A DNA stretch of 34,891 bases from Pseudomonadota bacterium (lineage in GTDB: Bacteria; Bdellovibrionota; Bacteriovoracia; Bacteriovoracales; Bacteriovoracaceae), in contig JAIYDC010000038.1 in NCBI GenBank assembly GCA_027487685.1, forward strand, positions 1-34,891. Direction: 5' to 3'. The notes beneath the pieces were generated by a model. The model did no database searches, was not told the origin of the DNA, and worked only from the letters and a program-made list of their open reading frames with translations. Each line of letters starts with the position of its first letter. Position 1 is the first letter of the stretch. A program made the position numbers and the translations under genes. Shown one piece after another: positions 6,225 through 25,447 of the stretch.

Positions 6225-7301
6225 CTAAACGTAAGAAAGCTTTAAGCGTTGATTCGCCCGATAAGTCCGGCGAACTTCGGCCATGAACTCACGGACCGAT
6301 TTCTCAAGCTTAACCTTTTCTCCAGAATACGATGCTTCAATACGAGCTTTTAGATCCTGATAATTGAGATTTAACTCTGCTGCCAACTCTTCGAAGCGCT
6401 TCTTAAAGCGATAATCTTTTTCGATGAGTTCGACCACTTTCTGAGCGAACTCCTGCCGAAGTGTCGCCGGCGAGTAGACGGATCGCAGGTCAGCAAGACC
6501 AAGCCAACTCAAAATCTTCAGATAAAAAAAGCCAACGTCGAACTCGAACCATCGGTGGCGGAAAGAACAGGACTTCATGTGGGCGTGGTGATTGTTATGG
6601 TCGAGTTCTCCGCAGATGATAAAATTCAGAGGCAGAAGGAAGCCGAGGTTCCGGCTGTTATCGGTAGTCACATGATTCCGGTAACCCCACCAATGAGCGA
6701 GAGCATTAACACCCCCAATAGCAAAGATTGGGGACACAAGGAAATTAAGGACTGATACGAGAGCGCCCCAGACCGGACCGAAGAGCACTAAAGTTACGCA
6801 TGTAAGGATAACAGGTCCTGTGAACGAATTCTGGTGGATAAATGTTTCGAGCTTGTTTGCCGGAATCGTTTTCTTAATTTTAACCACCTCGGGCCAAGAT
6901 TTAGCTCGAGTGTAGTCGAAAACACCAAGGAAGAGAGCGTGCCAGATCCCCTTGTGGAGTGGACTATGGGGATCACGCTCCTGATCAGAGTGCGCATGAT
7001 GCCAGATATGAACCGAGACCCAGTCAACTTTTGAGAGTGATGTGACCATCCACAGCCAGATCTGCATGGGTAAGTCTACCCACTTATTAATGATGACGCC
7101 TTTATGCGTATGATAACGGTGGAAAGAAAGGCTCATAGCGGTGATAGTCAGGTGAGAGATCGCGACCACGTAGATAATTAAGAAAAGTACTGGATGATTA
7201 GCGAGCGAGTCACCCACAAGGCCATTCGCACCAAAAACACCTCGAATGAGGTAGTACGCTAGGACGTAGAGAACAGAGAACACAGACAGAAGCTTAACCA
7301 T
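6225..7301 (-). CDS. acyl-CoA (stearoyl-CoA type) fatty acid desaturase
   Basis: This membrane diiron enzyme inserts a double bond into a fatty acyl chain using O2 and two external electrons. All histidine ligand motifs of the stearoyl-CoA desaturase family are present: HRYHTH (H61, H64, H66), HIWHHAH (H98, H101, H102), NALAH (H203) and HNNHH (H235, H238, H239). There are hydrophobic segments around residues 1-25, 37-60 and 160-200. No cytochrome b5 or rubredoxin domain is fused, so a separate donor is needed; the ferredoxin gene lies 15 bases upstream. A charged, helical C-terminal extension of ~85 residues follows the core and is unusual. The start is ATG 7301, with AAGGA nine bases upstream; a TTG at 7310 is less likely. 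Confidence 0.92.
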   Translation of the reverse strand: MVKLLSVFSVLYVLAYYLIRGVFGANGLVGDSLANHPVLFLIIYVVAISHLTITAMSLSFHRYHTHKGVIINKWVDLPMQIWLWMVTSLSKVDWVSVHIWHHAHSDQERDPHSPLHKGIWHALFLGVFDYTRAKSWPEVVKIKKTIPANKLETFIHQNSFTGPVILTCVTLVLFGPVWGALVSVLNFLVSPIFAIGGVNALAHWWGYRNHVTTDNSRNLGFLLPLNFIICGELDHNNHHAHMKSCSFRHRWFEFDVGFFYLKILSWLGLADLRSVYSPATLRQEFAQKVVELIEKDYRFKKRFEELAAELNLNYQDLKARIEASYSGEKVKLEKSVREFMAEVRRTYRANQRLKLSYV

Positions 7302-7316
7302 GAATAACAATCCTTA

Positions 7317-7694
7317 TCAAGACCGATGCATGCCTGATATCTCGGAGGGGATGATGAGAATCCCCGGAGGGGCCACATCCAAACAGAGTCCACAGGCAAT
7401 GCATCCACGATCGTCGATAGTGAAGGCGTTTGCAGTCACTGTGATCGCTTGGGTCGGACAAAGTGTCTCACAGTTTTTTGAGTCTTTCCACTTTGTCAGG
7501 AGCTCAGTATTTCCCGTAAACCGCGGAATTCTCTTTAATCGAGGTGAATAGAAATAAATTTGGTCAGGGAGCTCAGTCCGATGCAGCTTAAATGCTCGAA
7601 ATACCTTCCTTCCCTGAAGTTTGCGCAGTTGCCGCGAGTTCCAGAGTGACCGCAAAAGAGAAACCTTACTGTAGAAATTTCGGCTTAAAATCAT
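7317..7694 (-). CDS. NuoI/HyfH-like ferredoxin retaining one [4Fe-4S] cluster
   Basis: The 125-residue protein aligns with NuoI: a basic N-terminal region, then PRFTG matching the DRFRG of the nearby NuoI, then a ferredoxin fold. Motif I keeps only C75 and C79 (NCETLCP); its first two cysteines are replaced. Motif II keeps C98, C101 and C104 but has Ala108 where the fourth cysteine should be. In bacterial two-cluster ferredoxins, the cluster of motif II uses the last cysteine of motif I. C98, C101, C104 and C79 would therefore still hold one complete [4Fe-4S] cluster, while the other is lost. AGG precedes the ATG. The gene lies two bases after the NuoCD-like gene and 15 bases before the desaturase, making it a candidate electron donor (inference). 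Confidence 0.75.
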   Translation of the reverse strand: MILSRNFYSKVSLLRSLWNSRQLRKLQGRKVFRAFKLHRTELPDQIYFYSPRLKRIPRFTGNTELLTKWKDSKNCETLCPTQAITVTANAFTIDDRGCIACGLCLDVAPPGILIIPSEISGMHRS

Positions 7695-7696
7695 AA

Positions 7697-9322
7697 TTAC
7701 CTGTCCATTTCAAATCGAGAGAAACCCAGACTTAAGAGCGAAGCTCTCAGCTGCTCCTCAGGGAGTCCGCGCACAAAAATCTCGAGGGACTGGGCGAGCG
7801 TAAAGCCAGGGGTCTTGAGCTTCAGACGCGCTGGTCTTATGGGAGTTCCGAGCTTGAGCAGGTAGCCGGCCTCACCTCCCGGAGCCTCCTGTGTAGCGTA
7901 ATGCCATTCGTCTGGTACCTTGAGCGAGGCAAAATATTCATGAAGCTCAAGCAAGTTTTTTGAGAACTCCTCACCAATAACACCCCCAAGCGGAAGATTA
8001 TCAATGACCTGAATAATGATACGGAAACTTTGAACAATTTCTTCGTAACGGATAAGGTAGCGATCAAATGCAGCACCGTGAATACCCACAGGAATGTCGA
8101 AGTCGATGTCGCGGTAGAAATAAAAGGGTTGAGATTTCCTGAGATCGAAATTAAGTCCCGCCGCTCGCATTGCTGGACCGGTTACACCCCACTGGAGGAT
8201 GCACTGAGCGTCGACGGGATTGCCAGCGAGAGTATTGCGAAAACGGGTCTGTCCTAGGAGCGAATTCTGAATGGTACGAAGGTTTCTGCCAAGTATGTCG
8301 ACGGCGGCCTGACATTCGACGACCCAACCAGCAGGAAGGTCTTCCTTAACTCCACCGATGACTGCGGTCCCTTGCCCGTGACGGGAACCACAGGACTTTT
8401 CTAACAGCTCAACGATTTTTTCCCGAGCGTTGATCAGAAGACGCGCCTCAGGAAGATTGAGCGCACCACAGATCGCCGACATGACACCGAGGTGATCTGT
8501 GACACGTGCGAGCTCAAGCATAATGATCCTAATCGCCTGGGCGCGCTCAGGGATGCGGATACGGTACATATCTTCAATCGCTTTGGCCCAAGCGATTGAA
8601 TAGGTTGGGCCGACGCTGAGGTTTATCCGGTCGACAAGCTGGAGGATTTGAAAAATGTCCTTTTCACCTAAGAGTCGCTCAAGGCCTTGGTGATGAAAAC
8701 CAATACTCAGCCGCGACGACACAACATGGAGGGGGTCAAAGCACACCTGCCACTCAAAATTCCCGTCAGTGACGGGAGAGAAGAGGTCGAAGGTCTTCCA
8801 TCGGTAGTTCTCTTCAGGGTACGGAACTTCGGACTTATTAGGATTGTAGCGAAGTGCCGGATGGGTCTGGGCGAGTTCAAAAGGCCAGGTCATTGATGCG
8901 ACCGAGGAACGGAGTGGAAAGTTTTTTTGCCCTTCTGGGAGCAAAAGCGCATGAAGAGGTCGATCGAACGAAAGTCCGAGCATCTCCGCTTCCTCGCGCT
9001 CATACCAATCGGCGTTGGAAAAGAAGCGAGTGACACTTGGAATGATTTCTCCAACGGCTGCATTGACATGAAGATTAAGGCGCTGGTGAGTCCCCATGCT
9101 CAAAAGATTATAAACGAGCTCACAGGCCCCAGTTTCTGGGACATAGGCCGCAATGTCGTCGAGAGTAAAAAAACCTAAGTCCTCTTTTACAAATTCCACC
9201 CACTCAAGAAGATCGGTGGGTCTAAGCGTCAGGTGATGTTGACCCCAAGCATCGCGATAGCGATCTCCGCCAACGTGGGATAAGACCGCTTTTGCCTTCT
9301 CAAATTCCTTCCAACTAAACAC
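7697..9322 (-). CDS. NuoC-NuoD fusion paralog (HycE/HyfG-like), no Ni ligands
   Basis: The 541-residue protein fuses a NuoC-like domain (about 1-140, with ADWYEREEAEMLG near 104-116) to a NuoD-like domain (about 180-541). The second half closely tracks the genuine NuoD: TGPAMRAAG, RKSQPFYFYRDIDFD and DRYLIRYEEIVQSFRI. The paired CxxC motifs that bind Ni-Fe in group 4 hydrogenases are absent, so it is not a hydrogenase. The quinone-site residues of NuoD are also gone: the HPAMHG hairpin is missing, and the Tyr in DRLNY is Leu235 (DRINL). The start is GTG 9322, overlapping the upstream gene by eight bases. It is probably a soluble-arm protein with a non-quinone or structural role (inference). 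Confidence 0.8.
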   Translation of the reverse strand: MFSWKEFEKAKAVLSHVGGDRYRDAWGQHHLTLRPTDLLEWVEFVKEDLGFFTLDDIAAYVPETGACELVYNLLSMGTHQRLNLHVNAAVGEIIPSVTRFFSNADWYEREEAEMLGLSFDRPLHALLLPEGQKNFPLRSSVASMTWPFELAQTHPALRYNPNKSEVPYPEENYRWKTFDLFSPVTDGNFEWQVCFDPLHVVSSRLSIGFHHQGLERLLGEKDIFQILQLVDRINLSVGPTYSIAWAKAIEDMYRIRIPERAQAIRIIMLELARVTDHLGVMSAICGALNLPEARLLINAREKIVELLEKSCGSRHGQGTAVIGGVKEDLPAGWVVECQAAVDILGRNLRTIQNSLLGQTRFRNTLAGNPVDAQCILQWGVTGPAMRAAGLNFDLRKSQPFYFYRDIDFDIPVGIHGAAFDRYLIRYEEIVQSFRIIIQVIDNLPLGGVIGEEFSKNLLELHEYFASLKVPDEWHYATQEAPGGEAGYLLKLGTPIRPARLKLKTPGFTLAQSLEIFVRGLPEEQLRASLLSLGFSRFEMDR

Positions 9323-9710
9323 GATTGACCCGCTTATGGCATTTCATAAGTGCTTCGAGGATATCTTCAGGAAGAATATTCCATCCGGGTAGATCTACTG
9401 CGTTGATGGACAGAGGGTCGACCAGGTCAACGAGCGGATTGCTCTGGAAAAGAGTTGCTGACTCCCCCATCAAAAGGAGAATCTTAGATCCTCTTGCGTC
9501 CGAAAGAATACGTTCGGCTGCACTTCGATTGCGGGCCGTGATCACGCCATCCCACAAAACAACATCCGCTGCGTCGTAATCAGTTGTGATCTCCCATGCA
9601 AACGGAAGAGCATGAGCGTACTTATCTCCAGTCAATGCAGGAAGCTCCGTTGCATACAAAAGATGAGAGAAACTAAAAATCCGAAGAGGTTGTTGAGTAT
9701 CTTTCTTCAC
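9315..9710 (-). CDS. degenerate NuoB-like protein lacking cluster N2 cysteines
   Basis: The 131-residue protein matches NuoB in outline. LLYATELPAL occupies the position of the SCCGIE segment, ADVVLWDGVITARN matches [13 protein letters not shown], and DLPGWNILPEDILEAL matches the [15 protein letters not shown] region. All four ligands of cluster N2 are missing; the only cysteine (C124) lies near the C-terminus and has no counterpart. The genuine NuoB in the same window keeps C35, C36, C101 and C130. The protein therefore probably binds no [4Fe-4S] cluster. The start is GTG, overlapping the lipoprotein stop as GTGA; the 3' end overlaps the NuoCD-like gene by eight bases. The homology is distant and rests on position and context. 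Confidence 0.6.
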   Translation of the reverse strand: MKKDTQQPLRIFSFSHLLYATELPALTGDKYAHALPFAWEITTDYDAADVVLWDGVITARNRSAAERILSDARGSKILLLMGESATLFQSNPLVDLVDPLSINAVDLPGWNILPEDILEALMKCHKRVNRV

Positions 9711-11185
9711 AAGATGATCTTCATTTTGTCCGAGATGTCCCGAACTTTGCGCGGTTTCCAGCCGGCGTCTTCCGGAAACACACGAAGACTCCTTAATGGT
9801 TCAGCGTTGGGGTCCTTCTCACAGCCCAAACGATGGGACTTCACTCGCACCCAAGAATAGAGCTTTTGATGTGTCCCTCGTGTGTGGTTATCGTAGTCGA
9901 TGAAACGATAAAAATCCCGCTCATTCTTAAGTGTGGTCAGAAAATTGGGAAGATACTCCATCGCTCGGTCGATATCCCCATCCCGGCAAGACTCTATCCC
10001 TTCCTGTAGCTGGTAAACAGGGACTCCACCGTCGTTAATCAAGTTCTTCTGCCAAACCTTTGAGCGACAGTCAAAATAGTATCCCTCGCGGTGAAGCCGG
10101 AAAAAGATGCCCGCATAGCTCAGGAACCAAAAGGATTCAGGGTCGCGGTTCACATTCCCGTGATAGACAAACTTCTCGCAGGTCCCGAGCTCTTTCCCAT
10201 ATTTCTTAGTGAAGCGCTGAAAGCGGGTGGCGAAATCCATGGCCAATCCTTTCTTCCTGAGCTCCTCTCTAAGTTCAAGTTTTTTACGGAGTTCTTCCGT
10301 GGTCTTCGCCGCCCGATCCTCTGGACGCTCTTTACCAACCTCATCCCACAATGAATCATAGAGTCGGTGGCAACCCCGCTGGATCCGTTTGAGCTCAGTT
10401 TCAGTCATGAGGATAGAGCGTTTCTTGAAGTAGTCGAAAGCCTCGTCAAAATGAATCAGCTCTCCGATGCGAGTCTGAGGAAAGCCAGTGCCACCAATAA
10501 CATTTCGTCCATCAAGGTTCCCGAGGTAGGCATGGGCCGTCTCCCAATCAACCTCACGCCGAAAATCCACCAGTGTCTTAACATTATCGTAAGCCGCATC
10601 ATCGGCATCGACGGCAACGAACACTAGCCGCGAGAGCCAGTTACTTTTCCCAAGACAGTTGCCCTCAGGACAGGTTTGCTCGACAAAGGCGCCCACAAGG
10701 CGACCTCGTTGAAAGTTTGTCCCCGCCGTTGTCGAAAAATTACGTTTAGACCAAAGGATAACTTTGTGTGGTTCTCCGAGCTGATCGAGAACTCTTGGGA
10801 TGTAGCCAATTGAGAATGGAGGCCGACCCAGCTCTCCCCCGTATTTTCCCCAGACGTCACTTTGGGAACAATAAGTGTGAGAGTAAAAACGTTGGCCTGA
10901 GCCAAGGTCAAGCCCGTAGGCATAGGGGGATTTCCGAGGGGTCAGGATGATGACATTCACCTCTTGCCCCTGAAAGTCCGGAGTGGGATCAAAGAACAGA
11001 TGAGGCACTGGATCAGCGTAGTTATCACTGATCGAGTGCCGGAGGTTGGTACTAAACCAGCGGTTGGGATAAGTCGTGAGCAGCTCTCGCGAGTAGCGTT
11101 CGTCCCTGAAAGTGCAGGAAGAAATGCCAACTGCAAGTGCCATGACGGCCGGAAGGCTTTTCAATTGACATAATCTCAAGAACAT
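9707..11185 (-). CDS. predicted lipoprotein, unknown function
   Basis: The 492-residue protein has a lipoprotein signal peptide ending in the lipobox ISSC (Cys near residue 24), so it is probably anchored in the inner or outer membrane facing the periplasm. It has many Trp, Tyr and Phe residues and about ten cysteines, plus a charged helical stretch around 290-320 rich in EELRKK. I recognise no family. It is the first gene of the operon with the NuoB-like, NuoCD-like, ferredoxin and desaturase genes, overlapping the next start by four bases. No Shine-Dalgarno sequence is seen; a -10-like TATGAT lies only three bases before the ATG. Only 26 bases separate it from the divergent tRNA-Leu gene. 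Confidence 0.7.
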   Translation of the reverse strand: MFLRLCQLKSLPAVMALAVGISSCTFRDERYSRELLTTYPNRWFSTNLRHSISDNYADPVPHLFFDPTPDFQGQEVNVIILTPRKSPYAYGLDLGSGQRFYSHTYCSQSDVWGKYGGELGRPPFSIGYIPRVLDQLGEPHKVILWSKRNFSTTAGTNFQRGRLVGAFVEQTCPEGNCLGKSNWLSRLVFVAVDADDAAYDNVKTLVDFRREVDWETAHAYLGNLDGRNVIGGTGFPQTRIGELIHFDEAFDYFKKRSILMTETELKRIQRGCHRLYDSLWDEVGKERPEDRAAKTTEELRKKLELREELRKKGLAMDFATRFQRFTKKYGKELGTCEKFVYHGNVNRDPESFWFLSYAGIFFRLHREGYYFDCRSKVWQKNLINDGGVPVYQLQEGIESCRDGDIDRAMEYLPNFLTTLKNERDFYRFIDYDNHTRGTHQKLYSWVRVKSHRLGCEKDPNAEPLRSLRVFPEDAGWKPRKVRDISDKMKIIL

Positions 11186-11211: not shown

Positions 11212-11298
11212 GCCCGGGTGGTGGAATGGTAGACACAAGGGATTTAAAATCCCTCGGGTGAATAACCCGTACGAGTTCGAGTCTCGTCTTGGGCACCA
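11212..11298 (+). tRNA. tRNA-Leu (anticodon TAA)
   Basis: The sequence folds as a class II tRNA. The acceptor stem GCCCGGG pairs with CTTGGGC (two G-U pairs). The anticodon stem is AGGGA/TCCCT with loop TTTAAAA, giving anticodon TAA at 11245-11247. The long variable arm pairs CGGGT with ACCCG. The T arm is ACGAG-TTCGAGT-CTCGT. The discriminator base is A, and the CCA end is encoded (11296-11298). It decodes UUA/UUG. No integrase gene or repeated attachment site is seen next to it. No clear terminator follows within the 174 bases before the next gene. Confidence 0.97.
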
Positions 11299-11744: not shown

Positions 11745-13223
11745 TTATTTCGAAATCATTTTAACGAACGACATCACCGCTCGAGGGAACAAACCAAACT
11801 GGAGCGTAGCTGCTGCTGAAACAATGGCCGCAAGACCAGCGCCTTTGAGTGCCTGATAAGTCGCGGCCTCTCCAGTGCTCTCTTTCATGAACATATAAAC
11901 GATCACGCGGAGATAGTAGTATACGGAGACGACAGAGGTAAGGACTGCAATAACGACGAGCGGCACTTCCCCAGCAGTCACGGCGGAGCTGAAGAGCCCA
12001 TACTTACCGATAAAACCGGAGGTTAGCGGAATGCCCGCCATCGAGAGCAGAAAGACAGTCAAAAAGGCACCGAGGAACGGATGACGGACGCCCAGACCAG
12101 CGATCTGATCAAGAGTCAAGTCCTTCTGATTACGCTCTTCAAATTGAGAGATCACAGCGAAGGCCCCAAGATTGGAGAGGGCGTAGAAAAAGAGGTAGAG
12201 GATCAAGTCCTGCGGCGACGTCGAACCAAGGTTCATGGCGTACAGTCCAAGCAACAAATAGCCGGTGTGAGCGATGGTTGAGAAGGCCAGCATACGCTTG
12301 ATTTCGGTTTGAGCAATAGCAACAAAGTTTCCATAGATCATTGAAGCGGCTGCAACAAGCCAGATGTAACTCTGGAACCACTCGAGGCCCGCGACATTCT
12401 CGAGAAAGACCATGTGCTGACAGATCTTGGCCAGAGCCATAAAGGCCGTGAATTTCACTGCGGCACCCATGAGGCCTGTAACGTTTGTCGCTGCTCCCTG
12501 GTAAACGTCCGGCACCCAGCTGTGGAAAGGGACCGCCCCAACCTTGAAAAGCATGGCGGTCAATACAAGTCCGAGGCCAAGGTAATAAATGAACGATGGA
12601 TTTGGATGAGAACTCAGGAACATAGAAATCTTCCCAAGATCAAAGGTCCCCGTCGCACCGAAGACGAGGGAGGCGCCATAAAGAAAGAGGGCCGAGGCAA
12701 GTCCTCCGAGAATGAAGTACTTAAGCCCAGCCTCAGCAGAGAACGAGCTCGTTCGCCGCATGGCCACGAGGACGTAAATAGCAAGGGACATGATCTCAAG
12801 GGAGATAAACATAAACAGAAGGTGCTGGGTGCTGACCATCAGCACCATTCCCGCTGTGGCAAAAAGAATGAGGCCATAGATCTCGGCCAGAAGGCCCTCT
12901 TTTTTATCCTGTCCATAGGTCAAGACTACGGCAATGGCAGAAAACGAGAGGAGCATAAGCGATAGAGTCTTTGTAAACGGACTAAAAACTAATGTCTCAC
13001 CGAGAATACTCACATCACTAGTAAAGAGAACCGCGTTCCCCTGGAACAGCGCCATGACGACCGCCGCAAACGCGACTACGAAGGCGCGAAAGTGTCCACT
13101 CTGCTTATGAGTCCCAGCAAGGAGACTTAGAAGCCCTCCACCAGAAAGGATAAGGACTGGTAGTAAGTTAATGTACTCAGTAAGACCGAGGGCCGTTAGA
13201 GGAAATGCTTCAATTAGGGTCAT
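11745..13223 (-). CDS. nuoN: NADH-quinone oxidoreductase subunit N
   Basis: NuoN is one of the three antiporter-like proton-pumping subunits of complex I. The 492-residue protein is hydrophobic throughout, consistent with about 14 membrane helices. It has the family segments LEIMSLAIYVLVA, GGLASALFLYGAS and FKVGAVPFHSWVPDVYQGA, the last carrying the Lys and His of the proton path. The ATG overlaps the nuoM stop (ATGA). It is the last standard subunit in the operon. Confidence 0.96.
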   Translation of the reverse strand: MTLIEAFPLTALGLTEYINLLPVLILSGGGLLSLLAGTHKQSGHFRAFVVAFAAVVMALFQGNAVLFTSDVSILGETLVFSPFTKTLSLMLLSFSAIAVVLTYGQDKKEGLLAEIYGLILFATAGMVLMVSTQHLLFMFISLEIMSLAIYVLVAMRRTSSFSAEAGLKYFILGGLASALFLYGASLVFGATGTFDLGKISMFLSSHPNPSFIYYLGLGLVLTAMLFKVGAVPFHSWVPDVYQGAATNVTGLMGAAVKFTAFMALAKICQHMVFLENVAGLEWFQSYIWLVAAASMIYGNFVAIAQTEIKRMLAFSTIAHTGYLLLGLYAMNLGSTSPQDLILYLFFYALSNLGAFAVISQFEERNQKDLTLDQIAGLGVRHPFLGAFLTVFLLSMAGIPLTSGFIGKYGLFSSAVTAGEVPLVVIAVLTSVVSVYYYLRVIVYMFMKESTGEAATYQALKGAGLAAIVSAAATLQFGLFPRAVMSFVKMISK

Positions 13224-14764
13224 TTTGAACTCACTTTCTGGATGAGAGAGGTGCCGTAGGACTCCAAGGTAGCGTCGGACTTCCAGAAGAAGACCTTCGG
13301 AAAAAAGCCGATGCCGAAGACGAAGACGATGAGCACACTCATCGCAACGATTTCTTTGAGGTTAAGATCAGTCAGGCCATCAAGATCTGTGCGGGTTTGC
13401 GGTCCGAGCATCACAAGCTGATACGCTTTGAGCGCGTAAACCGCGCCAAGAATCACGCCGGTTCCTGCGAAGAGGACATAAACCGGCTGGACCTGAAATG
13501 CTCCAATGAGGATCAGGAATTCTCCCACGAAACCATTGGAACCAGGGAGTGCCACGGAAGAAAGAGTCATAATCATAAAACCGATCGCCATCAGCGGAAC
13601 GGTCTTCGCAAGTCCACCGAACTCTTGAAGATTTCGGGTATGAAGACGTTCGTAAAGGAAGCCGACAATGAGGAATAGACCTCCGGCCGAAATGCCGTGG
13701 TTAATCATCTGATAGAGGGCACCGGCAATCGCGACTTTTTGGAAGGCGAAAAGACCGATCATTATGTAGCCCATGTGGGAAACCGAAGAATAGGCCACAA
13801 GCCTTTTGAAGTCAGTTTGATGAAGGGCGCAGAACGCTCCGTAGATAATTCCGATCACTCCCAGTACGATGAAGAGTGTGGAGAAATAGTGAGCAGCCTG
13901 TGGGAAAAGTGGGATCGCAATCCGCATGAGGCCGTAGGTCCCCATTTTGAGCAGAACGGCCGCCAGGAAGACTGAGCCAACGGTAGGGGCCTGGACGTGG
14001 GCGTCTGGAAGCCATGTGTGAAAAGGAACCATGGGAACTTTGATCACAAACGCGAGAGCGAAGGCCAGGAACAGTAATCCTTGAGGGGACATTAGAGCCG
14101 CTCCGAGGGAAGATCCGTCGAAAGCGAAGTTAAGTTTGGCCAAAGCAGCGAGCTCACCAGTAGGCGCACCAAACTCGGCAGCACCAGTTTTCAAGAGCCA
14201 GAAGATCGCTACGAGCATCAGGAGGGAGCCTACCATAGTATAGAGGAAAAACTTGACCGTGGCGTAAATCCGATCCTTACCACCCCAAATGCCGATCATG
14301 AAGAACATAGGAATCAGAACGACTTCCCAGAAAAAATAAAAGAGGAAGATATCGGCAGCGAGAAAGGTTCCGTACATACCGCTCTGGAGCGCCATAATAC
14401 AGAAAACAAAAAACTTTTCCTTCTTAAGCCCAGCGCCGTGATGCAGATCAGGCCATGTTCCGAGGATCGCAACTGGTGCAACGTAAGCGGTGAGCATCAT
14501 GAGAGGAAGACTAATCCCGTCTATTGCGACGAGATAGTTGATTCCCCAATCTGGCAGCCACTCGACGAGGTGGACAAACTGCGATGCCGCCGAAGCGCCG
14601 TCGAAGTTTAAATAGACCACTGTCGCAAGGACCGCATTGACGAGAGTCTGGATGAAGGCCACCTTACGGAACTGCTCTTCAAGGCGCTGTGGAAGAAGTG
14701 CAACAATGAGCCCGAAAAGAAGCGGAGTGAAGATAATCCAGGAAAGTAAGATCGATGTTTCCAT
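13220..14764 (-). CDS. nuoM: NADH-quinone oxidoreductase subunit M
   Basis: NuoM is an antiporter-like membrane subunit of complex I. The 514-residue protein has the conserved helix FFWEVVLIPMFFMIGIWG with the essential Glu (E147). It also has FVIKVPMVPFHTWLPDAHVQAPT and the loop LHQTDFKRLVAYSSVSHMGY. AAGGA lies nine bases before the ATG. The gene sits 11 bases after nuoL and overlaps nuoN. Confidence 0.97.
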   Translation of the reverse strand: METSILLSWIIFTPLLFGLIVALLPQRLEEQFRKVAFIQTLVNAVLATVVYLNFDGASAASQFVHLVEWLPDWGINYLVAIDGISLPLMMLTAYVAPVAILGTWPDLHHGAGLKKEKFFVFCIMALQSGMYGTFLAADIFLFYFFWEVVLIPMFFMIGIWGGKDRIYATVKFFLYTMVGSLLMLVAIFWLLKTGAAEFGAPTGELAALAKLNFAFDGSSLGAALMSPQGLLFLAFALAFVIKVPMVPFHTWLPDAHVQAPTVGSVFLAAVLLKMGTYGLMRIAIPLFPQAAHYFSTLFIVLGVIGIIYGAFCALHQTDFKRLVAYSSVSHMGYIMIGLFAFQKVAIAGALYQMINHGISAGGLFLIVGFLYERLHTRNLQEFGGLAKTVPLMAIGFMIMTLSSVALPGSNGFVGEFLILIGAFQVQPVYVLFAGTGVILGAVYALKAYQLVMLGPQTRTDLDGLTDLNLKEIVAMSVLIVFVFGIGFFPKVFFWKSDATLESYGTSLIQKVSSK

Positions 14765-14775
14765 TATAGTAATCC

Positions 14776-16746
14776 TTAAACCAGTACTTTAAAAATAAAG
14801 AGCATACCCAGAAGCAAGCCGCCAAGTATCAGGATGCCGTAAGTCTGGAGATCCCCTGTCTGAACTGCGCGGAGTGTAGAGCCTATAACCCGAACGCCAC
14901 GACCAACCCCATTCACAGCACCATCAACCAAATATTTATCAACCACATCCCCCGCGAACGCCGCGATCTTTTTAACGGGCGTCACAATGATCATCTGGTA
15001 GAACTCGTCAATATAGTACTTGTTCGCAAGGAGCTTCTGAAGCGAAGAAAAGCCTCCAAAAATATCGGAGATAAACTCGATCCTTTTAAACATCGCAATT
15101 CCAGCGAAGAAGGAAACGAGAGCGATCACAGAAGAGCCTAACATCACGACAGCTTCGTGAAGCGGAAGCTTAACGGCCACCAGTGGAAGCACCTTTGCAG
15201 GGACAACCGGAGAAAGCCACTGAGAGAGGAGATGCGGCATATGACCGAAGTAATCCCCAAGAAGGTGCGGAACGCCCAGAAATCCGCCAAAGGCCGCCAG
15301 GCCCGCGAGCACATAAAGGGGAGCTGTCATGAGTGCTGGAGACTCGTGCAGGTGGTCCCGAACTTCATGGGTCATTTTCTCATTACCATAAAACGTAAGA
15401 GACATCATGCGACCAGTATAGAAAGCAGTCAACATCGCGGTAAGGACACCAATCACAAAGAGATACGAAACCCCATTCGGGAGTGCAATCGCAGAATAAA
15501 GGATCTCATCTTTGGAGAAGAAGCCAGAGAAGAAAGGAATACCGGAAATCGCCAGGGACCCGATGAGCATAGTGAAGTGGGTGTGAGGTAGGTATTTTTT
15601 CAGGCCACCCATCTTGGTCATGTCCTGCTCACCTGAGCAAGCGTGAATAACAGAACCAGAACCAAGGAACAGAAGTGCTTTAAAGAACGCATGGGTCATG
15701 AGGTGAAAGACGGCCGTCTGGTAAGCTCCTACGCCACAGGCGAGAAACATAAAACCTAGCTGGGAAACGGTGGAGTATGCTAAGACCTTCTTAATATCCG
15801 TCTGCGCTACGGCGATGGAGCCTGCAAACAGCGCAGTGAGGGCCCCTGTGTGAGCAATCACAGAAAGTGCTAGAGGCGAAAGTTCAAACAGAGGGTTCAA
15901 TCGGGCGATCATGTAGACACCCGCGGTGACCATGGTCGCTGCGTGGATGAGTGCCGAGACAGGAGTTGGACCGCTCATGGCATCCGGGAGCCAAACATAA
16001 AGTGGAATCTGCGCTGATTTGCCAGTTGCGCCGACGAACAGAGAAAGGCAGATGAGGGTCGCTGAAGGCATGATCCGGGTCACAACGGCCGGGTCGGCCA
16101 GGAGTGTATTTATCTCGGTGAGTGAAAGGGTGCCGAGTTCGCGGAAGAGCAAGAACATTCCGATCAGGAACCCTAGATCTCCGATGCGGTTAACAATGAA
16201 GGCTTTTTTTCCCGCATTGGCCTTCTCGGTGTCGGTGTACCAAAAGCCAATCAGAAGATAAGAGCAAAGACCCACACCCTCCCAACCAAAAAAGAGGAGA
16301 GGGAGGTTATTCCCCATGACTAAAAGGAGCATGTTAAAGCAGAAAAGATTCAGGTACGAGAAGTATCGGCCGACACACTCTTCGTCATGCATATAACTCG
16401 TAGAGTAAAGGTGAATGAGCGTGCCGATTCCAGTGATGATCATCACTAGAGTTCCTGAGAGCCTATCGATTCGGAGTTCGAAAGGTATCTCGAGGCCTCC
16501 GAAGTTAAACCATTCAAAACAGTAGGTCACAAGCGAAGGATTCTCCCCTCCCATGAGCTTCCCAAAGGCCATCCCAGCAAGGACGAAGGAGAGACCGATG
16601 AAGAAGGTCGCTGTTCCTCCGGCAGTCTCTGCGCTCGTTTTTGCGAATCCTTTGAGTTTCAACGGGTATACGACCCCGTTGATAAAGAAGCCGATCAGCG
16701 GCGAAATCAAAATAAGAAGCGGCAGTGATGAGTGCATTGTTTCCAC
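14776..16746 (-). CDS. nuoL: NADH-quinone oxidoreductase subunit L
   Basis: NuoL is the distal proton-pumping subunit of complex I, with a long lateral helix along the membrane arm. The 656-residue length includes this C-terminal extension. Diagnostic segments are FFGWEGVGLCSYLLIGFW (conserved Glu), KSAQIPLYVWLPDAMSGPTPVSALIHAATMV (given here in parts: KSAQIPLYVWLPDAM and SALIHAATMV) and AQTDIKKVLAYSTVSQLG. The start is uncertain: GTG 16746 has AAAGGA eight bases upstream, while an in-frame ATG three codons later is also possible. Confidence 0.97.
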   Translation of the reverse strand: METMHSSLPLLILISPLIGFFINGVVYPLKLKGFAKTSAETAGGTATFFIGLSFVLAGMAFGKLMGGENPSLVTYCFEWFNFGGLEIPFELRIDRLSGTLVMIITGIGTLIHLYSTSYMHDEECVGRYFSYLNLFCFNMLLLVMGNNLPLLFFGWEGVGLCSYLLIGFWYTDTEKANAGKKAFIVNRIGDLGFLIGMFLLFRELGTLSLTEINTLLADPAVVTRIMPSATLICLSLFVGATGKSAQIPLYVWLPDAMSGPTPVSALIHAATMVTAGVYMIARLNPLFELSPLALSVIAHTGALTALFAGSIAVAQTDIKKVLAYSTVSQLGFMFLACGVGAYQTAVFHLMTHAFFKALLFLGSGSVIHACSGEQDMTKMGGLKKYLPHTHFTMLIGSLAISGIPFFSGFFSKDEILYSAIALPNGVSYLFVIGVLTAMLTAFYTGRMMSLTFYGNEKMTHEVRDHLHESPALMTAPLYVLAGLAAFGGFLGVPHLLGDYFGHMPHLLSQWLSPVVPAKVLPLVAVKLPLHEAVVMLGSSVIALVSFFAGIAMFKRIEFISDIFGGFSSLQKLLANKYYIDEFYQMIIVTPVKKIAAFAGDVVDKYLVDGAVNGVGRGVRVIGSTLRAVQTGDLQTYGILILGGLLLGMLFIFKVLV

Positions 16747-16751
16747 AGTCC

Positions 16752-17054
16752 TTATCCTTTCAATGTCGTTGCGGACTGAGTCTTAATAGACCCGAAATTC
16801 CGGTAGAGGTTAACAAGGATCGAAAGTCCGACTGCTGATTCAGCGGCCGCAATAGTAATCACAAAAAAGACCTGAATCTGACCTTCGATCATTCCGGCAG
16901 ATTTCGAAAATGCTACGAGGGAGAGGTTCGCAGCATTTAAGAGAAGCTCGATCCCCATCAGGATCATGATGGTATCTCGGCGCAGGAGGACGACCAGCAT
17001 TCCAATGCAAAAGAGAAAGGCTGCCAGGATCTGGAGAAGAACATCATTAGTCAT
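16752..17054 (-). CDS. nuoK: NADH-quinone oxidoreductase subunit K
   Basis: NuoK is a small membrane subunit with three helices. The 100-residue protein keeps both glutamates needed for proton transfer, E36 (MGIELLLNAANLS) and E72 (AAAESAVGLS), at the same numbering as in E. coli. AAGGGT precedes the ATG. The stop lies five bases before the nuoL start. Confidence 0.97.
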   Translation of the reverse strand: MTNDVLLQILAAFLFCIGMLVVLLRRDTIMILMGIELLLNAANLSLVAFSKSAGMIEGQIQVFFVITIAAAESAVGLSILVNLYRNFGSIKTQSATTLKG

Positions 17055-17063
17055 AATATACCC

Positions 17064-17588
17064 TTAATCGAATTTTCTTTTAGCAAGGACTACAGCGGCG
17101 ACGATCGCAATCAAAAGTGCAAGCGATATGACTTCGAAGGATACGTAGTACTGGGTAAAAAGCGAGTGTGCCAGGACCTTAGAGTTACCTCCAAGCGAAG
17201 TTACATACTCAGACGTGAAGGCACCCGAAACAACGTCTCCACGATGGTTCCTATAGTGTTCAGTGAGTGCGTAGACTATGAAGCCAAAGACCGCGAGGCC
17301 TAATGCGACTGCGCCGGCAAAGGCCCCCGGGTGATCCTTGTAATCTTTCTCCTCAGTATTGAGGTTCAAAAGCATGATTGAGAAGATGAAAAGGACCATA
17401 ATCGCACCAGCATAGACGACGAGCTGGATGGTTGCGATGAGATGTTCTCCGATGAGACCATAAATTCCCGCCGTCATAATGAGAACTCCGAGGAGGCAAA
17501 TCGCCGAAGTAATCGCATTGCGGGTGAAAAGCATGGTGAGGGCGAGGATTGCCGAAATGACAGAGAGGATGACTATTACGGGACTCAT
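17064..17588 (-). CDS. nuoJ: NADH-quinone oxidoreductase subunit J
   Basis: NuoJ is a five-helix membrane subunit near the quinone site. The 174-residue protein has the typical helix IATIQLVVYAGAIMVLFIF, containing the conserved Tyr and the pi-bulge region, followed by MLLNLN. GAAGGA precedes the ATG, which overlaps the nuoI stop by one base (TAATG). Confidence 0.96.
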   Translation of the reverse strand: MSPVIVILSVISAILALTMLFTRNAITSAICLLGVLIMTAGIYGLIGEHLIATIQLVVYAGAIMVLFIFSIMLLNLNTEEKDYKDHPGAFAGAVALGLAVFGFIVYALTEHYRNHRGDVVSGAFTSEYVTSLGGNSKVLAHSLFTQYYVSFEVISLALLIAIVAAVVLAKRKFD

Positions 17589-18103
17589 TAGCTATCCTTC
17601 TTTTCGTGGCGCCCGTTCATCGGTCGCTTGAGTTGGTCGAGGTCTACGATGGCATCTTCCCGTGAATAGGTTGCCATTTCATAATTGGTCGAAAGCTTGA
17701 TAGCGTCCTTCGGACACGCCTCTTCACAGAAACCACAGAAACAGCACCGAAGGAGATCGATGTCAAAACTCGCAGGCTTCTTTTCTTTGGCAACGCCGTA
17801 AGTGTTATCGGCCTCATCCCTTTCCTCGGCGACAATGTGAATACACTCAGCCGGACAGACTGTCTCGCATAAGAAACAGGCAGTACAGTTCTCGGTTTTC
17901 TTAGGATCAACAGAGATGAAGTGGGCCCCTCGGAAGCGGTCAGAGTAGTCGCGCTTCTTCTCTGGATACATGATGGTCCAGCTTTTCCGGAAGAGGAACC
18001 CCTGGATAAAGCGCTTCATCGTGATCTTCATCCCGATGAGTATCGCCGGCAGGTAAGCCTTCTCGACTGCCGTATATTTCTTAGAAACGTTGATAGTTCC
18101 CAT
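17588..18103 (-). CDS. nuoI: NADH-quinone oxidoreductase subunit I (2x[4Fe-4S])
   Basis: NuoI carries clusters N6a and N6b, which pass electrons from NuoG to NuoB. The 171-residue protein has both complete motifs: C73, C76, C79, C83 and C120, C123, C126, C130. The N-terminal region contains an amphipathic segment that docks on the membrane arm. GAGAGG precedes the ATG. The ferredoxin at 7317-7694 is a shortened paralog that has lost one of these clusters. Confidence 0.97.
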   Translation of the reverse strand: MGTINVSKKYTAVEKAYLPAILIGMKITMKRFIQGFLFRKSWTIMYPEKKRDYSDRFRGAHFISVDPKKTENCTACFLCETVCPAECIHIVAEERDEADNTYGVAKEKKPASFDIDLLRCCFCGFCEEACPKDAIKLSTNYEMATYSREDAIVDLDQLKRPMNGRHEKKDS

Positions 18104-18112
18104 GGGGCCTCT

Positions 18113-19180
18113 CTATTGGTTGAAGTAGTAGACCCCAAGGGTCACTAACACGAGGTTAATAAGGGAAAGCGGGAATAGGATCTTCCACCCAAGGTCCATC
18201 AGCTGATCGAACCTAAAGCGTGGAAGGGTCCACCGGATCCAGACAAAGAGGAACATAAAAAATGCGACTTTCGAAGCGAGGGAGGCGAATTGGAAAACAG
18301 CTGTCACATTCGTTGTTCCAACCGCGCCAAACCCGAAGAACTCAGAGATAAGTGTCACCAGGAGACTCATTCCTGGAAGGAGAGAATAGCCACCGAAGAA
18401 GAGCGTCGAGATCAGTGCCGAGGCCATAATCATGGCGATGTACTCTGCCATGAAGAAAAGCGCGAACTTCATCGCGCCGTACTCGAGGTGATAGCCCGCC
18501 ACAATCTCAGACTCGCCTTCAGCAAGATCGAACGGGAGTCGGTTAGTCTCGGCGAAAATAGAGACTAGAAATACGAGAGCACCAAATGGATTAACCACCG
18601 CTCCCCAGTAGTTATTAACCTGCCATGACACCATTTCGTGAGGATTAAATGAGCCGTAGACTATCAACATGGAAAGGAGTGCCAGCCCCATTGAGATTTC
18701 GTAGGAAACAATCTGGGAAGATCCGCGAAGAGCACCGAGGACCGAATACTTATTCTTCGAGGCCCAGCCTGCGAGGATAAGGGGGTAAACTTCAAGGCCC
18801 GCGAAAGCTAGGATGAAGATCACTCCGGAGTCCATCTGAGCGATCTGGAGGACCACTTGGCGGCCTCCTACAATTGCCTTATCTCCAAAAGGAATGACCG
18901 CAAGAGCACAAAGTGGAGCGATCAGGGCAATAAGAGGCGCTAGATAATAATAGAACTTGTTAGCATCCTTAGGAACGAAGTCCTCTTTATGGATAAACTT
19001 CAACACATCCGCGAGTGGCTGCAGGAGACCAAAAGGTCCCACTCGGTTAGGGCCTACTCGACCCTGCATCCAGGCAGCACCGCGCCGCTCAAACCACACG
19101 GTCACCGGAACGACCCCAAGGCAAACCCCAACAACAAGGAGTATCTTTGCAATCAACTGGAGGAAATCAAAGTATTCCAT
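18113..19180 (-). CDS. nuoH: NADH-quinone oxidoreductase subunit H
   Basis: NuoH is the membrane subunit that forms the quinone entry channel with NuoB and NuoD. The protein is about 355 residues with eight hydrophobic segments. It has the signatures RVGPNRVGPFGLLQPLAD and PFDLAEGESEIVAGYHLEYG, the latter with the conserved acidic cluster. The start is taken as ATG 19180, in reach of GTGAG; an in-frame GTG at 19189 is the alternative. Confidence 0.96.
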   Translation of the reverse strand: MEYFDFLQLIAKILLVVGVCLGVVPVTVWFERRGAAWMQGRVGPNRVGPFGLLQPLADVLKFIHKEDFVPKDANKFYYYLAPLIALIAPLCALAVIPFGDKAIVGGRQVVLQIAQMDSGVIFILAFAGLEVYPLILAGWASKNKYSVLGALRGSSQIVSYEISMGLALLSMLIVYGSFNPHEMVSWQVNNYWGAVVNPFGALVFLVSIFAETNRLPFDLAEGESEIVAGYHLEYGAMKFALFFMAEYIAMIMASALISTLFFGGYSLLPGMSLLVTLISEFFGFGAVGTTNVTAVFQFASLASKVAFFMFLFVWIRWTLPRFRFDQLMDLGWKILFPLSLINLVLVTLGVYYFNQ

Positions 19181-19192
19181 ATAACTCACTTC

Positions 19193-20734
19193 TTACTTGT
19201 TAGCGCTCAGAAGACTAATAACATGATGAGCGGAGACCGCTCCCCCGCGATGCTCTATCGCCGGATGAAATTTCTGTACGATACCATCTGCGTTCTTAAA
19301 GCTACCCTCTTTTTCAATCGTCGCAAGGCCCGGGATCAACGCAAGAACGTTGGTAGTAGGAAGTGCTTTAACTTCGTCAATAGTCCAGACGCCCCAAAGG
19401 ATCACCTTTTGATTCGCAGAGAGCTTCGGAGTTCCCGCCCGGCCGTTCCTGAACAGGATCACGATATCCGCCGATGCTTCCCCGTTGGCAAGAGCAGCAA
19501 GGCCTGTCTCTTCTACACCGCGAGTATTGGGCGTTTTATCTGCCATACGAAGAAGAGCATCAAGTTTCTTATCTTCGCCTGAGGTACGAATAAAACCATT
19601 ATGGTAGCTAACACTTACTGGCCTTCCAAAAGCAAGTGTAGACTTCTCCTTCAAAAGTGCCGCTTCCTCGCGAGTCGCATCGGTTCCGACGATGAGCTGA
19701 ACAGATCCGGCGGACGCTACTGACTTCTTGATCTCACCGAGGACCGTGTCAAGGCTAGCGGCCGTCATAGCACCATTGTGATTCAGGAGCGGGGAAATAA
19801 CCCTCTTCGGGTTCATGAGGTCCTGGAAGGAAGAGCGACCTTCGTCACACATCCAGTGTCCGTTCACGAGTTCATTGAAAACCGGGACGTACCGGTAGGC
19901 GATATCTTTATCGGAATGGACTTCAATATTGCAGCCCTTAGAGCAGCGGTCACATATCGAGGCTTTCTTGTCCAGGAACCATGAACGTTTTTGGAAGCGA
20001 AAATCGTTCCATGTAAGGGCGCCGACCGGACAGAAGTCCGTTAGGCAGCCTTGGTAGTCATTGAACAGACCGCGCTCGTCAGCGACGTCAAGTTCCTTGT
20101 GCCAACCGCGGTTCACCATCACGAGGTCATTAGTCTTCGTGACATCATCAGTGAAGCGCACACAGCGCTCGCAGTGAACGCAGCGGTTCATGTTGAGTGT
20201 GACCTTGTCGGAAAGCACTTTAGTCGTGGCGTTTTCGAAGACGCGCTTTTCTTCTTTAAAGTTTGATTTCGATGGCCCGTACTCGAAATTGTAATCCTGG
20301 AGCTTACACTCTCCGGCCTTATCGCACACTGGGCAATCAAGCGGATGGTTAGTAAGCAGGAAATCCATGACTCCCGTCCGTGACTTCATAACCTTTTCGG
20401 ACTTCGTATGCACCACCATGCCATCGGCCGCAGGGGTCGAGCACGAGGTCATAAGTTTTGGCGCCTTCTCCACCTCTACTGTGCACATCCGGCAAGTGCC
20501 GGCGATTGGCATCCCCGGATGATAGCAGTAGCGAGGGATTTCCTCATGGAGCTTGTAGCGCTCAGTGACCTGCATAATCGTATCGCCAGGTTTAAACTCA
20601 AACTGCTTTCCGTCGATGGTGATCTTCGGAAGTGGCTTGGCATCAGGAGAGGGATCCGAGTGGACCGGTCTCAAAGCTGATGTGTAGTTGAGATCTTCCT
20701 TGGGCTTCTTAATTTCGAGGGTTGGGTTAGACAT
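19193..20734 (-). CDS. nuoG: NADH-quinone oxidoreductase subunit G, short form
   Basis: NuoG carries several clusters of the peripheral arm. In the numbering of the longer frame (start 20740), the ligands are: [2Fe-2S] C72, C83, C86, C100; N5 H132, C136, C139, C145; the next [4Fe-4S] C187, C190, C193, C237; and a fourth set C263, C266, C270, C298 that matches cluster N7. The protein is only ~513 residues, compared with about 900 in E. coli, so most of the molybdopterin-like domain is missing. A ~35-residue N-terminal extension precedes the ferredoxin fold. The start is taken as ATG 20734, with TAGG upstream, overlapping the nuoF stop by eight bases. Confidence 0.93.
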   Translation of the reverse strand: MSNPTLEIKKPKEDLNYTSALRPVHSDPSPDAKPLPKITIDGKQFEFKPGDTIMQVTERYKLHEEIPRYCYHPGMPIAGTCRMCTVEVEKAPKLMTSCSTPAADGMVVHTKSEKVMKSRTGVMDFLLTNHPLDCPVCDKAGECKLQDYNFEYGPSKSNFKEEKRVFENATTKVLSDKVTLNMNRCVHCERCVRFTDDVTKTNDLVMVNRGWHKELDVADERGLFNDYQGCLTDFCPVGALTWNDFRFQKRSWFLDKKASICDRCSKGCNIEVHSDKDIAYRYVPVFNELVNGHWMCDEGRSSFQDLMNPKRVISPLLNHNGAMTAASLDTVLGEIKKSVASAGSVQLIVGTDATREEAALLKEKSTLAFGRPVSVSYHNGFIRTSGEDKKLDALLRMADKTPNTRGVEETGLAALANGEASADIVILFRNGRAGTPKLSANQKVILWGVWTIDEVKALPTTNVLALIPGLATIEKEGSFKNADGIVQKFHPAIEHRGGAVSAHHVISLLSANK

Positions 20735-22067
20735 GGGCACCTACAAGTTTGTGAGATAGAGATTCCTGCCGGCCAACACCCTTGAGTCCTCCGCGAGTGA
20801 CAAGCTCTTCGAACTCGCCACGGAACTTACGGACTGAAGAAAGGGCAGGACCAGTGACAGCGTCGGCGAAAGCGCAGATTGTCTGGCCGGCCATATTTGC
20901 GCAAATTTTAGCAATGTAATCGAGGTCGTCGTGTGTGCCGCCACCGTCGAGGATGCGCTTAAACATCCGTGCGAGCCAGTGTGAGCCCTCGCGGCACTGA
21001 GAGCACTGCCCGCATGACTCATGCTCGTAAAATTTGAGCAGTGTGTACGTGGCCTCTACAATGTTTACGGTGTCGTTCATGACAATGAGTCCACCGGATC
21101 CGGCCATCGTTCCGGCCTTCATGAGAGAGTCGTAATCGGTCTTCACATCGCACTCGTCGGCCCGGAGCATCGGGGCAGAGGCACCACCAGGGATCACGGC
21201 CTTGAGTTTGCCACCCTTGGTCCCACCAGCGATCTCAATAATCTCATTGATGGTAAGGTTCATCGGCAGTTCATAGACGCCCGGCTTGTGGACATGGCCT
21301 GAAACGCAGATAAGACGAGTTCCACCCGAGCGCTCAGGACCCATCTTAGCGTACCTTTCCCAGCCTTTATCGATGATGTAGGGAACGGCAGCGAAAGTCT
21401 CGACGTTGTTCACACATGAAGGCATACCATAAGCCCCGACTTGAGCAGGGAATGGCGGCTTAAGCCGAGGCTCGCCCCGTTTGCCTTCGAGGGAATTTAG
21501 GAGTGCAGTTTCTTCGCCGCAGATATAAGCGCCGGCACCCTTATAAATAACAAGATCGTAGTTGAATCCTGAACCCAGGATATTTTTTCCAAGAAAGCCA
21601 CTCGCGTAGGCGTCGTCGAGCGCTTTCTGCATGAGACGAATTTCTTTGTGCCACTCGCCGCGGATATAAATAAAGCCCTTGTTCGATCCAATAGCATGGC
21701 CGCCGATGATCATACCTTCGATCATACGGTGCGGTGTTTTCGTAAAGATGAGACGGTCTTTGAAAGTGCCTGGCTCCCCTTCGTCGGCATTACAGACGAG
21801 GTACTTAGGCTTTGGATTCCCGTTGGCGTCAACTGGATTTGCGGGCATGAAGGACCACTTCATCCCTGTCGGGAACCCCGCTCCACCACGGCCACGGAGG
21901 TTAGATTTCTTGACTTCCTCGACCACATCCGCCGGCTTCATCTTGAGCGCTTTCTCAAGCGCCTTATAGCCATTTTCCTTCTCAACGTAAAAACTCAGCG
22001 TCTCGCAACCGGGAACGGTGACATTCGGGGTGATAACCGGTTCGAAATGCTCGTTATTATACTTCAT
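20727..22067 (-). CDS. nuoF: NADH-quinone oxidoreductase subunit F (NADH/FMN-binding)
   Basis: NuoF oxidises NADH through FMN and cluster N3. The protein has the FMN/NADH loops GRGGAGFPTGMKW, NADEGEPGTFKDR and GAGAYICGEETALLNSLEG, and the N3 ligands in CGQCSQCREG plus a Cys about 40 residues later (C352, C355, C358, C398). I chose ATG 22067 because GGAG lies eight bases upstream and it overlaps the nuoE stop as ATGA; the ATG at 22073 is too close to that site. The length is about 446 residues. Confidence 0.97.
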   Translation of the reverse strand: MKYNNEHFEPVITPNVTVPGCETLSFYVEKENGYKALEKALKMKPADVVEEVKKSNLRGRGGAGFPTGMKWSFMPANPVDANGNPKPKYLVCNADEGEPGTFKDRLIFTKTPHRMIEGMIIGGHAIGSNKGFIYIRGEWHKEIRLMQKALDDAYASGFLGKNILGSGFNYDLVIYKGAGAYICGEETALLNSLEGKRGEPRLKPPFPAQVGAYGMPSCVNNVETFAAVPYIIDKGWERYAKMGPERSGGTRLICVSGHVHKPGVYELPMNLTINEIIEIAGGTKGGKLKAVIPGGASAPMLRADECDVKTDYDSLMKAGTMAGSGGLIVMNDTVNIVEATYTLLKFYEHESCGQCSQCREGSHWLARMFKRILDGGGTHDDLDYIAKICANMAGQTICAFADAVTGPALSSVRKFRGEFEELVTRGGLKGVGRQESLSHKLVGAHV

Positions 22068-22588: not shown

Positions 22589-22598
22589 AGTTTTTCTC

Positions 22599-23804: not shown

Positions 23805-23806
23805 GG

Positions 23807-25020: not shown

Positions 25021-25030
25021 AAGATTCTCC

Positions 25031-25420: not shown

Positions 25421-25447
25421 AAACACCCTATGGAAAATGAATGACTT

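What the first reader, a model, noticed from the sequence alone, without database searches (positions are those of the whole stretch)
6225..11185. Five-gene operon joining a derived complex I quinone module to a fatty acid desaturase
Seen: lipoprotein, NuoB-like, NuoCD-like, NuoI-like ferredoxin and desaturase genes run in one direction with overlaps or gaps of -4, -8, 2 and 15 bases. No membrane-arm or NADH-module paralog accompanies them. Known: complex I and group 4 hydrogenases share the B-C-D-I module, and stearoyl-CoA-type desaturases need an external one-electron donor. Inferred: the module was detached from an energy-converting complex and reused, perhaps to feed electrons to the desaturase or to tie lipid unsaturation to respiratory state. 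I know of no described system with this composition.
Basis: partly seen in the sequence, partly recalled or inferred. Interest (0 to 1): 0.8.

Follow-up and report, generated by a model that had tools for sequence, protein, structure and literature searches.

The report
Catalytically dead complex I remnant operon
In a family of predatory-bacterium relatives, a second copy of the respiratory enzyme complex I has lost nearly every residue needed for its chemistry yet is still kept by selection, and this window holds its most stripped-down form, next to an odd lipoprotein and a fat-modifying enzyme that joined later.

Summary
The five genes and their spacing (-4, -8, 2, 15) are real and under strong purifying selection. 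The trio is not a quinone module feeding the desaturase. It is the last remnant of a second complex I of this Bacteriovoracaceae-type family.

One genus still has the source: lipo-B-CD-E-F-G-I with intact motifs, plus a second A-H-J-K-L-M-N membrane arm at another locus. Other genera lost E/F/G and the quinone residues. Several lineages, including the window's clade, lost the N2 cysteines of B. The membrane arm survives in most genera as A'-H'-J'-K'-L'-M'-N', barely recognisable as complex I. In the window's genus that arm is gone and only lipo-B'-CD'-I' (one 4Fe-4S cluster) remains.

The lipoprotein carries a family I pyrophosphatase fold with all catalytic residues replaced and eight invariant cysteines besides the lipobox.

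Linked desaturases occur in one clade only (5 of about 36 genera), are lost repeatedly there, and occur elsewhere without the module. Genomes with no canonical complex I still keep the module, so it is no complex I accessory.

Best reading: a selected, non-quinone-reducing scaffold descended from complex I. Its origin is well supported; its function is inferred.

The parts
9707..11185 (-). Lipoprotein (492 aa): signal peptide with lipobox Cys24; residues about 64-261 have the fold of a family I inorganic pyrophosphatase with all catalytic residues replaced; helical C-terminal part; eight further invariant Cys
   Evidence: invariant Cys; model, Foldseek, VIA-align Z 11-12.6 to PPases; profile hits only PPases, weak; hhalign prob 96.9, E 1.5e-10; catalytic residues
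9315..9710 (-). B': NuoB-derived protein (131 aa, GTG start) without any of the four N2-cluster cysteines
   Evidence: ligand positions read L-Y-S-W instead of C-C-C-C; fold: NuoB chains are best hits, E 7e-5
7697..9322 (-). CD': NuoCD-derived protein (541 aa, GTG start); quinone-site His and Tyr lost, core LRA.G...D.RK and DR motifs kept
7317..7694 (-). I': NuoI-derived protein (125 aa); one 4Fe-4S ligand set complete (C5 C6 C7 + C4), the other lost (one of four)
6225..7301 (-). DesA-type membrane fatty acid desaturase (358 aa, ATG at 7301), three His boxes; late, clade-specific addition to the locus
11745..25426 (-). Context, not part of the system: complete canonical NADH-type nuoA-N of the same genome, directly upstream
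11212..11298 (+). Context: divergent tRNA-Leu (anticodon taa), 26 bases from the lipoprotein start codon

Best explanation
The operon is the terminal remnant of a second, paralogous complex I of this family that lost its redox and pumping chemistry step by step while part of the assembly stayed under selection for another, non-redox purpose. SHOWN by sequence: the lipoprotein locus began as lipo-B-CD-E-F-G-I with intact motifs. E/F/G, the quinone-site residues, the N2 cysteines and one NuoI cluster were then lost in different lineages. The unlinked membrane arm of the same complex became an almost unrecognisable A'-H'-J'-K'-L'-M'-N' set and disappeared in the window's genus. The exported lipoprotein is a pyrophosphatase-fold protein without the catalytic residues. 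The desaturase gene joined late, in one clade. INFERRED: B', CD' and I' still form a small peripheral-arm-like scaffold on the inner face of the cytoplasmic membrane, attached through the conserved N-terminus of I' and in most genera through the ghost membrane arm. It does not reduce quinone; the remaining cluster of I' is structural or sensory. The lipoprotein works with it from the periplasmic side in envelope or lipid homeostasis, and the desaturase (in other genera a GT2 glycosyltransferase in the same slot) is a lineage-specific client or co-regulated neighbour.
For: Source state: g34 loci L147-L158 and L136 carry B-CD-E-F-G-I with intact NuoF NADH/FMN motifs, NuoB CCCC, NuoI 8 Cys and NuoD His/Tyr; g34 also has a second tandem membrane arm A-H-J-K-L-M-N. 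Graded decay: PF00146 bits for the second NuoH fall from 358 (G295) through 120, 99, 47 and 41 to 21 (G110), then below detection. Order A'H'J'K'L'M'N' and TM pattern persist before the same TPR gene. H' vs NuoH hhalign 88.9%, E 2.4e-6, against 0.2% or less for other subunits. Conserved pump and E-channel residues are mostly lost where alignable. Selection: dN/dS about 0.02-0.11 for window genes where dS could be estimated; intact ghost-arm ORFs with pN far below pS in g5. Coupling: no genome examined has a ghost arm without CD', and the four examined without CD' (G031, G249, G028, G254) lack the arm. Independence from real complex I: G034, G278 and G066 have no NuoH hit and only the derived CD, yet keep the module. 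Lipoprotein fold. Desaturase late and clade-limited.
Against: No direct evidence of function or of complex formation. J' is too diverged for significant homology in any genome, and L', M' and N' in most; their identity there rests on position, order, size and recognisable intermediates in G156, G271 and G134. Membrane attachment without the arm (window genus) is conjecture. The lipoprotein is also kept in genomes where B, CD, I and the arm are all gone (G031, G249), so it may act alone. Most genomes are MAGs. The lipoprotein model has mean pLDDT 56. The tree is the quick version.
Confidence: 0.6

Rival explanations
1. One reading: the trio is a re-used electron-transfer module, and I' hands electrons from its single 4Fe-4S cluster to the desaturase's di-iron site (or reports respiratory state to it).
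For: Tight operon; linkage kept in five genera of one clade; all linked clades have a decayed B; I' keeps one complete 4Fe-4S ligand set. Ferredoxin is a known donor for some acyl-lipid desaturases (PMC9825965).
Against: The cluster is equally conserved in genomes without the desaturase. G003, G004, G010 and G012 lost the desaturase but keep B'-CD'-I'. G028, G254 and G285 have the desaturase without the lipoprotein locus, and in G120 and G134 it is unlinked beside zinc-ribbon-like I' remnants. In G267 the I' motif is broken beside an intact desaturase. No electron input remains (no E, F, G, N2).
Confidence: 0.12
2. The module is an accessory, assembly or inhibitory factor of the canonical complex I encoded directly upstream.
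For: In the window and several g1 genomes it lies just downstream of nuoN; B' and CD' keep the fold of complex I subunits.
Against: G034, G278 and G066 have no NuoH hit and only the derived CD, yet keep the module. G003 and G012 lack the upstream NADH-type operon but keep the module. Elsewhere in the family the locus is not next to nuo genes.
Confidence: 0.07
3. A relict in neutral decay: pseudogenes on their way out, with no function.
For: Stepwise loss of genes and motifs across the family, ending with the lipoprotein alone in G031, G249 and G263.
Against: Intact overlapping ORFs throughout the genus; dN/dS about 0.02-0.11 where dS could be estimated, 0.07-0.09 in the G003/G012 pair that lacks the desaturase; ghost-arm ORFs intact with pN far below pS in g5; parallel retention in many genera.
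Confidence: 0.06
4. A different redox activity: the scaffold binds a new substrate in the old quinone cavity and uses the one cluster of I' with an unknown partner.
For: One 4Fe-4S ligand set is complete in nearly all I'; the core of CD' around LRA.G...D.RK is strongly conserved.
Against: No cluster can sit next to the old cavity because B' lacks all N2 ligands. In G120, G134 and G191 I' has become zinc-ribbon-like, and in G267 its motif is broken.
Confidence: 0.15

Closest known systems
Respiratory complex I (NDH-1, NuoA-N)
   Same: B', CD' and I' descend from NuoB, NuoCD and NuoI; NuoB fold retained; gene order B-CD-I; ghost membrane arm in the order A-H-J-K-L-M-N in relatives
   Different: No NADH module, no N2 ligands, no quinone-site His/Tyr, one instead of two NuoI clusters, no membrane arm in the window genus; joined to an exported pyrophosphatase-fold lipoprotein
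Energy-converting (group 4) [NiFe] hydrogenases and the related Ehr complexes that lack the NiFe ligands (from own knowledge; no paper found)
   Same: Share the B-C-D-I module; Ehr is a precedent for loss of an active site in this superfamily
   Different: Sequence affinity is to NuoCD, not hydrogenase; the losses here also hit the N2 ligands, the NuoI cluster and the ion-translocating arm
DesA-type / stearoyl-CoA-type membrane desaturases
   Same: Three His boxes, full-length similarity to NCBIfam NF049918 and to SCD1
   Different: Score 205 against an equivalog cut-off of 400; electron donor unknown; sits behind a complex I remnant in one clade
Family I (soluble) inorganic pyrophosphatase
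   Same: Domain 64-261 of the lipoprotein matches the whole fold
   Different: Exported lipoprotein, none of 13 catalytic residues conserved as in PPase, eight invariant Cys, extra helical C-terminal half

Membership tests
Respiratory complex I (NDH-1) | NuoB with four Cys ligands of cluster N2 | tested here: not met
   Ligand positions read LYSW in the window and never CCCC in genus g1; intact CCCC in g34 and most other genera
Respiratory complex I (NDH-1) | NuoI with two 4Fe-4S clusters (8 Cys) | tested here: not met
   One ligand set 4/4, the other 1/4 in the window
Respiratory complex I (NDH-1) | Quinone-site His and Tyr of NuoD (T. thermophilus His38, Tyr87) | tested here: not met
   SPVTDG and DRINLSVG in the window against SHPAMHG and DRLNYCSA in canonical NuoD; naming of the residues from PMC7434922
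Respiratory complex I (NDH-1) | Membrane arm A, H, J-N belonging to this copy | tested here: not met
   Absent in the window genus: nuoN of another complex I is followed directly by the TPR gene; degenerate arm in most other genera, intact in g34
Respiratory complex I (NDH-1) | Descent from and fold of NuoB/NuoCD/NuoI | tested here: met
   and the series of intermediates
Group 4 [NiFe] hydrogenase | Two CxxC motifs binding NiFe in the large subunit | tested here: not met
   No CxxC at either place in CD'; C-terminus reads RFEMDR (sequence)
Membrane fatty acid desaturase | Three conserved His boxes | tested here: met
   FHRYHTHKG, HIWHHAHSD, GELDHNNHHAH
DesA family desaturase NF049918 | Equivalog score cut-off 400 bits | tested here: not met
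   205 bits, E 2e-60
Family I inorganic pyrophosphatase | PPase fold | tested here: met
   VIA-align Z 11-12.6 over residues about 64-261, hhalign prob 96.9 with controls under 1; the model itself is of modest confidence
Family I inorganic pyrophosphatase | Catalytic Glu, Lys, Arg, Asp and Tyr residues | tested here: not met
   None of 13 positions conserved as in PPase over 79 sequences
Bacterial lipoprotein | Signal peptide with lipobox cysteine | tested here: met
   Cys24 invariant in 79 sequences; acylation and final location not testable here

The most novel reading that the evidence does not exclude
A multi-subunit machine built on the complex I scaffold but without electron transfer or proton pumping, spanning the inner membrane in most of the family and paired with an exported pseudo-pyrophosphatase lipoprotein, performs a new envelope function; the window shows its smallest surviving core, with a desaturase recruited to it.
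Probability: 0.35. Interest if true: 0.92.

Novelty: new variant of a known kind. Interest (0 to 1): 0.74.

Why it matters
All complex I relatives known to me convert energy (redox-driven pumps, hydrogenases, antiporters). Here a copy has lost its redox and, as far as alignable, its pumping residues in graded steps over dozens of related genomes, and the remainder is still under selection, even where no working complex I exists. That gives a rare dated series for how a large enzyme becomes a non-enzyme, and a direct way to ask what the complex I scaffold can do without its chemistry. It also shows an exported pyrophosphatase-fold lipoprotein not covered by Pfam or NCBIfam.

Tried and rejected
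Electron donor to the desaturase: rejected as the general role. Accessory of canonical complex I: rejected. Pseudogene decay: rejected. Hydrogenase: no CxxC motifs. Pfam and NCBIfam on the lipoprotein gave nothing; only fold and profile comparison placed it. Profile-profile comparison of J', L', M' and N' with the canonical subunits using the nine most diverged genomes was not significant; less diverged genomes were needed. The desaturase tree is weakly supported where the unlinked copies attach (supports 0.006-0.5), so one gain of linkage rests on the lipoprotein tree, not on the desaturase tree. Literature searches for a redox-inactive complex I or for this family's Nuo sets found nothing relevant.
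Full report
Observation. They are lipoprotein, NuoB-like, NuoCD-like, NuoI-like and desaturase. One statement needs correction: a complete canonical nuoA-N operon sits directly upstream on the same strand (11745-25426), separated by an acylphosphatase-like ORF and a divergent tRNA-Leu. The genome has further NuoD and NuoH copies elsewhere. Named close relatives are MAGs titled Bacteriovoracaceae, Bacteriovorax stolpii or Proteobacteria; I call the group the Bacteriovoracaceae-type family (f1).

What is missing from the trio. B' has none of the four N2 cysteines (L-Y-S-W), though its predicted fold (pLDDT 78.5) has NuoB chains as best PDB matches. I' keeps one 4Fe-4S ligand set (C5, C6, C7 + C4) and has lost the other. 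CD' has lost the quinone-site His and Tyr but keeps the LRA.G...D.RK and DR cores. No electron path from NADH to quinone remains in these proteins.

Where it comes from. A profile of the lipoprotein finds the locus in 82 genomes of the family and, weakly, in one genome outside it. Except in fragmentary or most reduced loci it lies at the same place, convergent to aat, an arginase-family gene and a 2-hydroxyacid dehydrogenase gene. Gene content is graded. Genus g34 and L136/G295 have lipo-B-CD-E-F-G-I with intact NuoF NADH/FMN motifs, NuoB cysteines, NuoI cysteines and quinone residues. Others keep only G, or degenerate F and G. Most keep B-CD-I. Some keep CD alone or the lipoprotein alone.

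The matching membrane arm. The family's common complex I is split between two loci, A-H-J-K-L-M-N and B-C-D-I, without E/F/G. In g34 a second A-H-J-K-L-M-N set follows the first in tandem, which makes the lipoprotein locus the peripheral arm of a second complex I (inference from gene content). In other genera the same position holds seven small membrane-protein genes in the same order. The second NuoH can be followed down by PF00146 score: 358 (G295), 120 (G178), 99 (G148), 47 (G188), 41 (G159), 21 bits (G110), then below detection. All ghost subunits except J' have recognisable intermediates, e.g. G156 (A' 33, H' 117, L' 119, M' 168, N' 121 bits) and G271 (K' 49, M' 182). H' matches NuoH by profile comparison at 88.9%, E 2.4e-6, and no other subunit. 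Where they can be aligned, the conserved NuoH E-channel stretch and many antiporter Lys/Glu positions are gone. In the window's genus and in G058 the ghost arm is absent; in G029 and G267 only A'-K' and a stub remain.

Still selected. Window against G006: dN/dS is 0.02-0.09 for lipoprotein, CD', I' and desaturase; B' has dN 0.16 with saturated dS. In the G003/G012 pair, which has no desaturase, lipoprotein, B' and CD' give 0.07-0.09. The ghost-arm genes of g5 have pN 0.18-0.32 against pS 0.72-0.92. dS is saturated in several pairs, so the ratios are only indicative there. In the genomes examined, none has the ghost arm without CD', and the four examined without CD' (G031, G249, G028, G254) lack the arm; this link between two distant loci argues for a shared function. 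G034, G278 and G066 have no NuoH hit and only the derived CD, yet keep module and ghost arm.

The lipoprotein. Lipobox Cys24 and eight more cysteines are invariant in 79 sequences, as expected of an exported, disulfide-bonded protein (inference). Its model is of modest confidence (pLDDT 56), but the top 50 Foldseek hits listed are all family I pyrophosphatases, as are the 50 VIA-align entries shown, Z 11-12.6 for the best. The only PDB profile hits are PPases at E 0.03-0.26. A profile comparison with four PPases of the family gives 96.9%, E 1.5e-10, over the whole domain, against under 1% for six control families. None of 13 catalytic positions is conserved as in PPase.

The desaturase. All linked copies fall in one clade of the lipoprotein tree (support 98, quick tree), in genera g1, g5, g10, g31 and g55, out of about 36 family genera with the locus. 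In g1, 20 of 24 genomes have it and G003, G004, G010 and G012 do not, with no ortholog elsewhere. It occurs without the lipoprotein locus in G028, G254 and G285 and unlinked in G120 and G134. All 36 loci with an intact NuoB N2 motif lack it, but all linked cases lie in one clade, so this is one correlation, not many. In other clades the slot behind I holds a GT2 glycosyltransferase or a methionine sulfoxide reductase.

How it may work. Shown: descent, stepwise losses, selection, co-retention with the ghost arm in relatives. Inferred: B', CD' and I' still assemble on the cytoplasmic side, held by the conserved N-terminus of I', and serve a structural or sensory role. In the most reduced I' of G120, G134 and G191 the cluster motif has turned into CxxC...CxxC pairs, which fits a structural site better than electron transfer. 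That the lipoprotein acts with them in the envelope is a guess from operon membership.

Novelty. I found no report of a redox-inactive complex I lineage in the open-access library, which lacks most subscription journals. By descent it is a variant of a known kind; if a function is shown it may be a new kind.

Noticed in passing
L202-L209 and L061-L064: Family-wide complex I without E/F/G, split into A-H-J-K-L-M-N (next to mfd and a TPR gene) and a separate B-C-D-I locus
   Followed up: partly
11745-25426: Complete NADH-type nuoA-N in the window; G003, G012 and G018 of the same genus lack the corresponding NuoD/NuoH, so it is variably present
   Followed up: no
L160, L162, L119 (I' remnants): NuoI remnants turned into small zinc-ribbon-like proteins (CxxC...CxxC) that keep the NuoI N-terminal segment
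   Followed up: partly
L200:257-3475 and L218:3213-6413: About 1060-aa TPR protein with one predicted TM segment always follows the membrane arms, also where the ghost arm is gone; function unknown
   Followed up: partly
L033:6200-6907, L041:6531-7226: GT2-type glycosyltransferase overlaps the end of I in g3 and G035, in the slot used by the desaturase elsewhere
   Followed up: partly
11212-11298: tRNA-Leu(UAA) divergent to the operon, only 26 bases from the lipoprotein start codon; in L036, L038, L044 and L045 the lipoprotein frame runs on into what looks like the same tRNA sequence, so the operon promoter probably overlaps it
   Followed up: no
G019:C103 (L042): A nuoB-C-D-E-F-G-I contig in a g1 MAG resembling complex I operons of other families of the phylum; possibly contamination
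   Followed up: no
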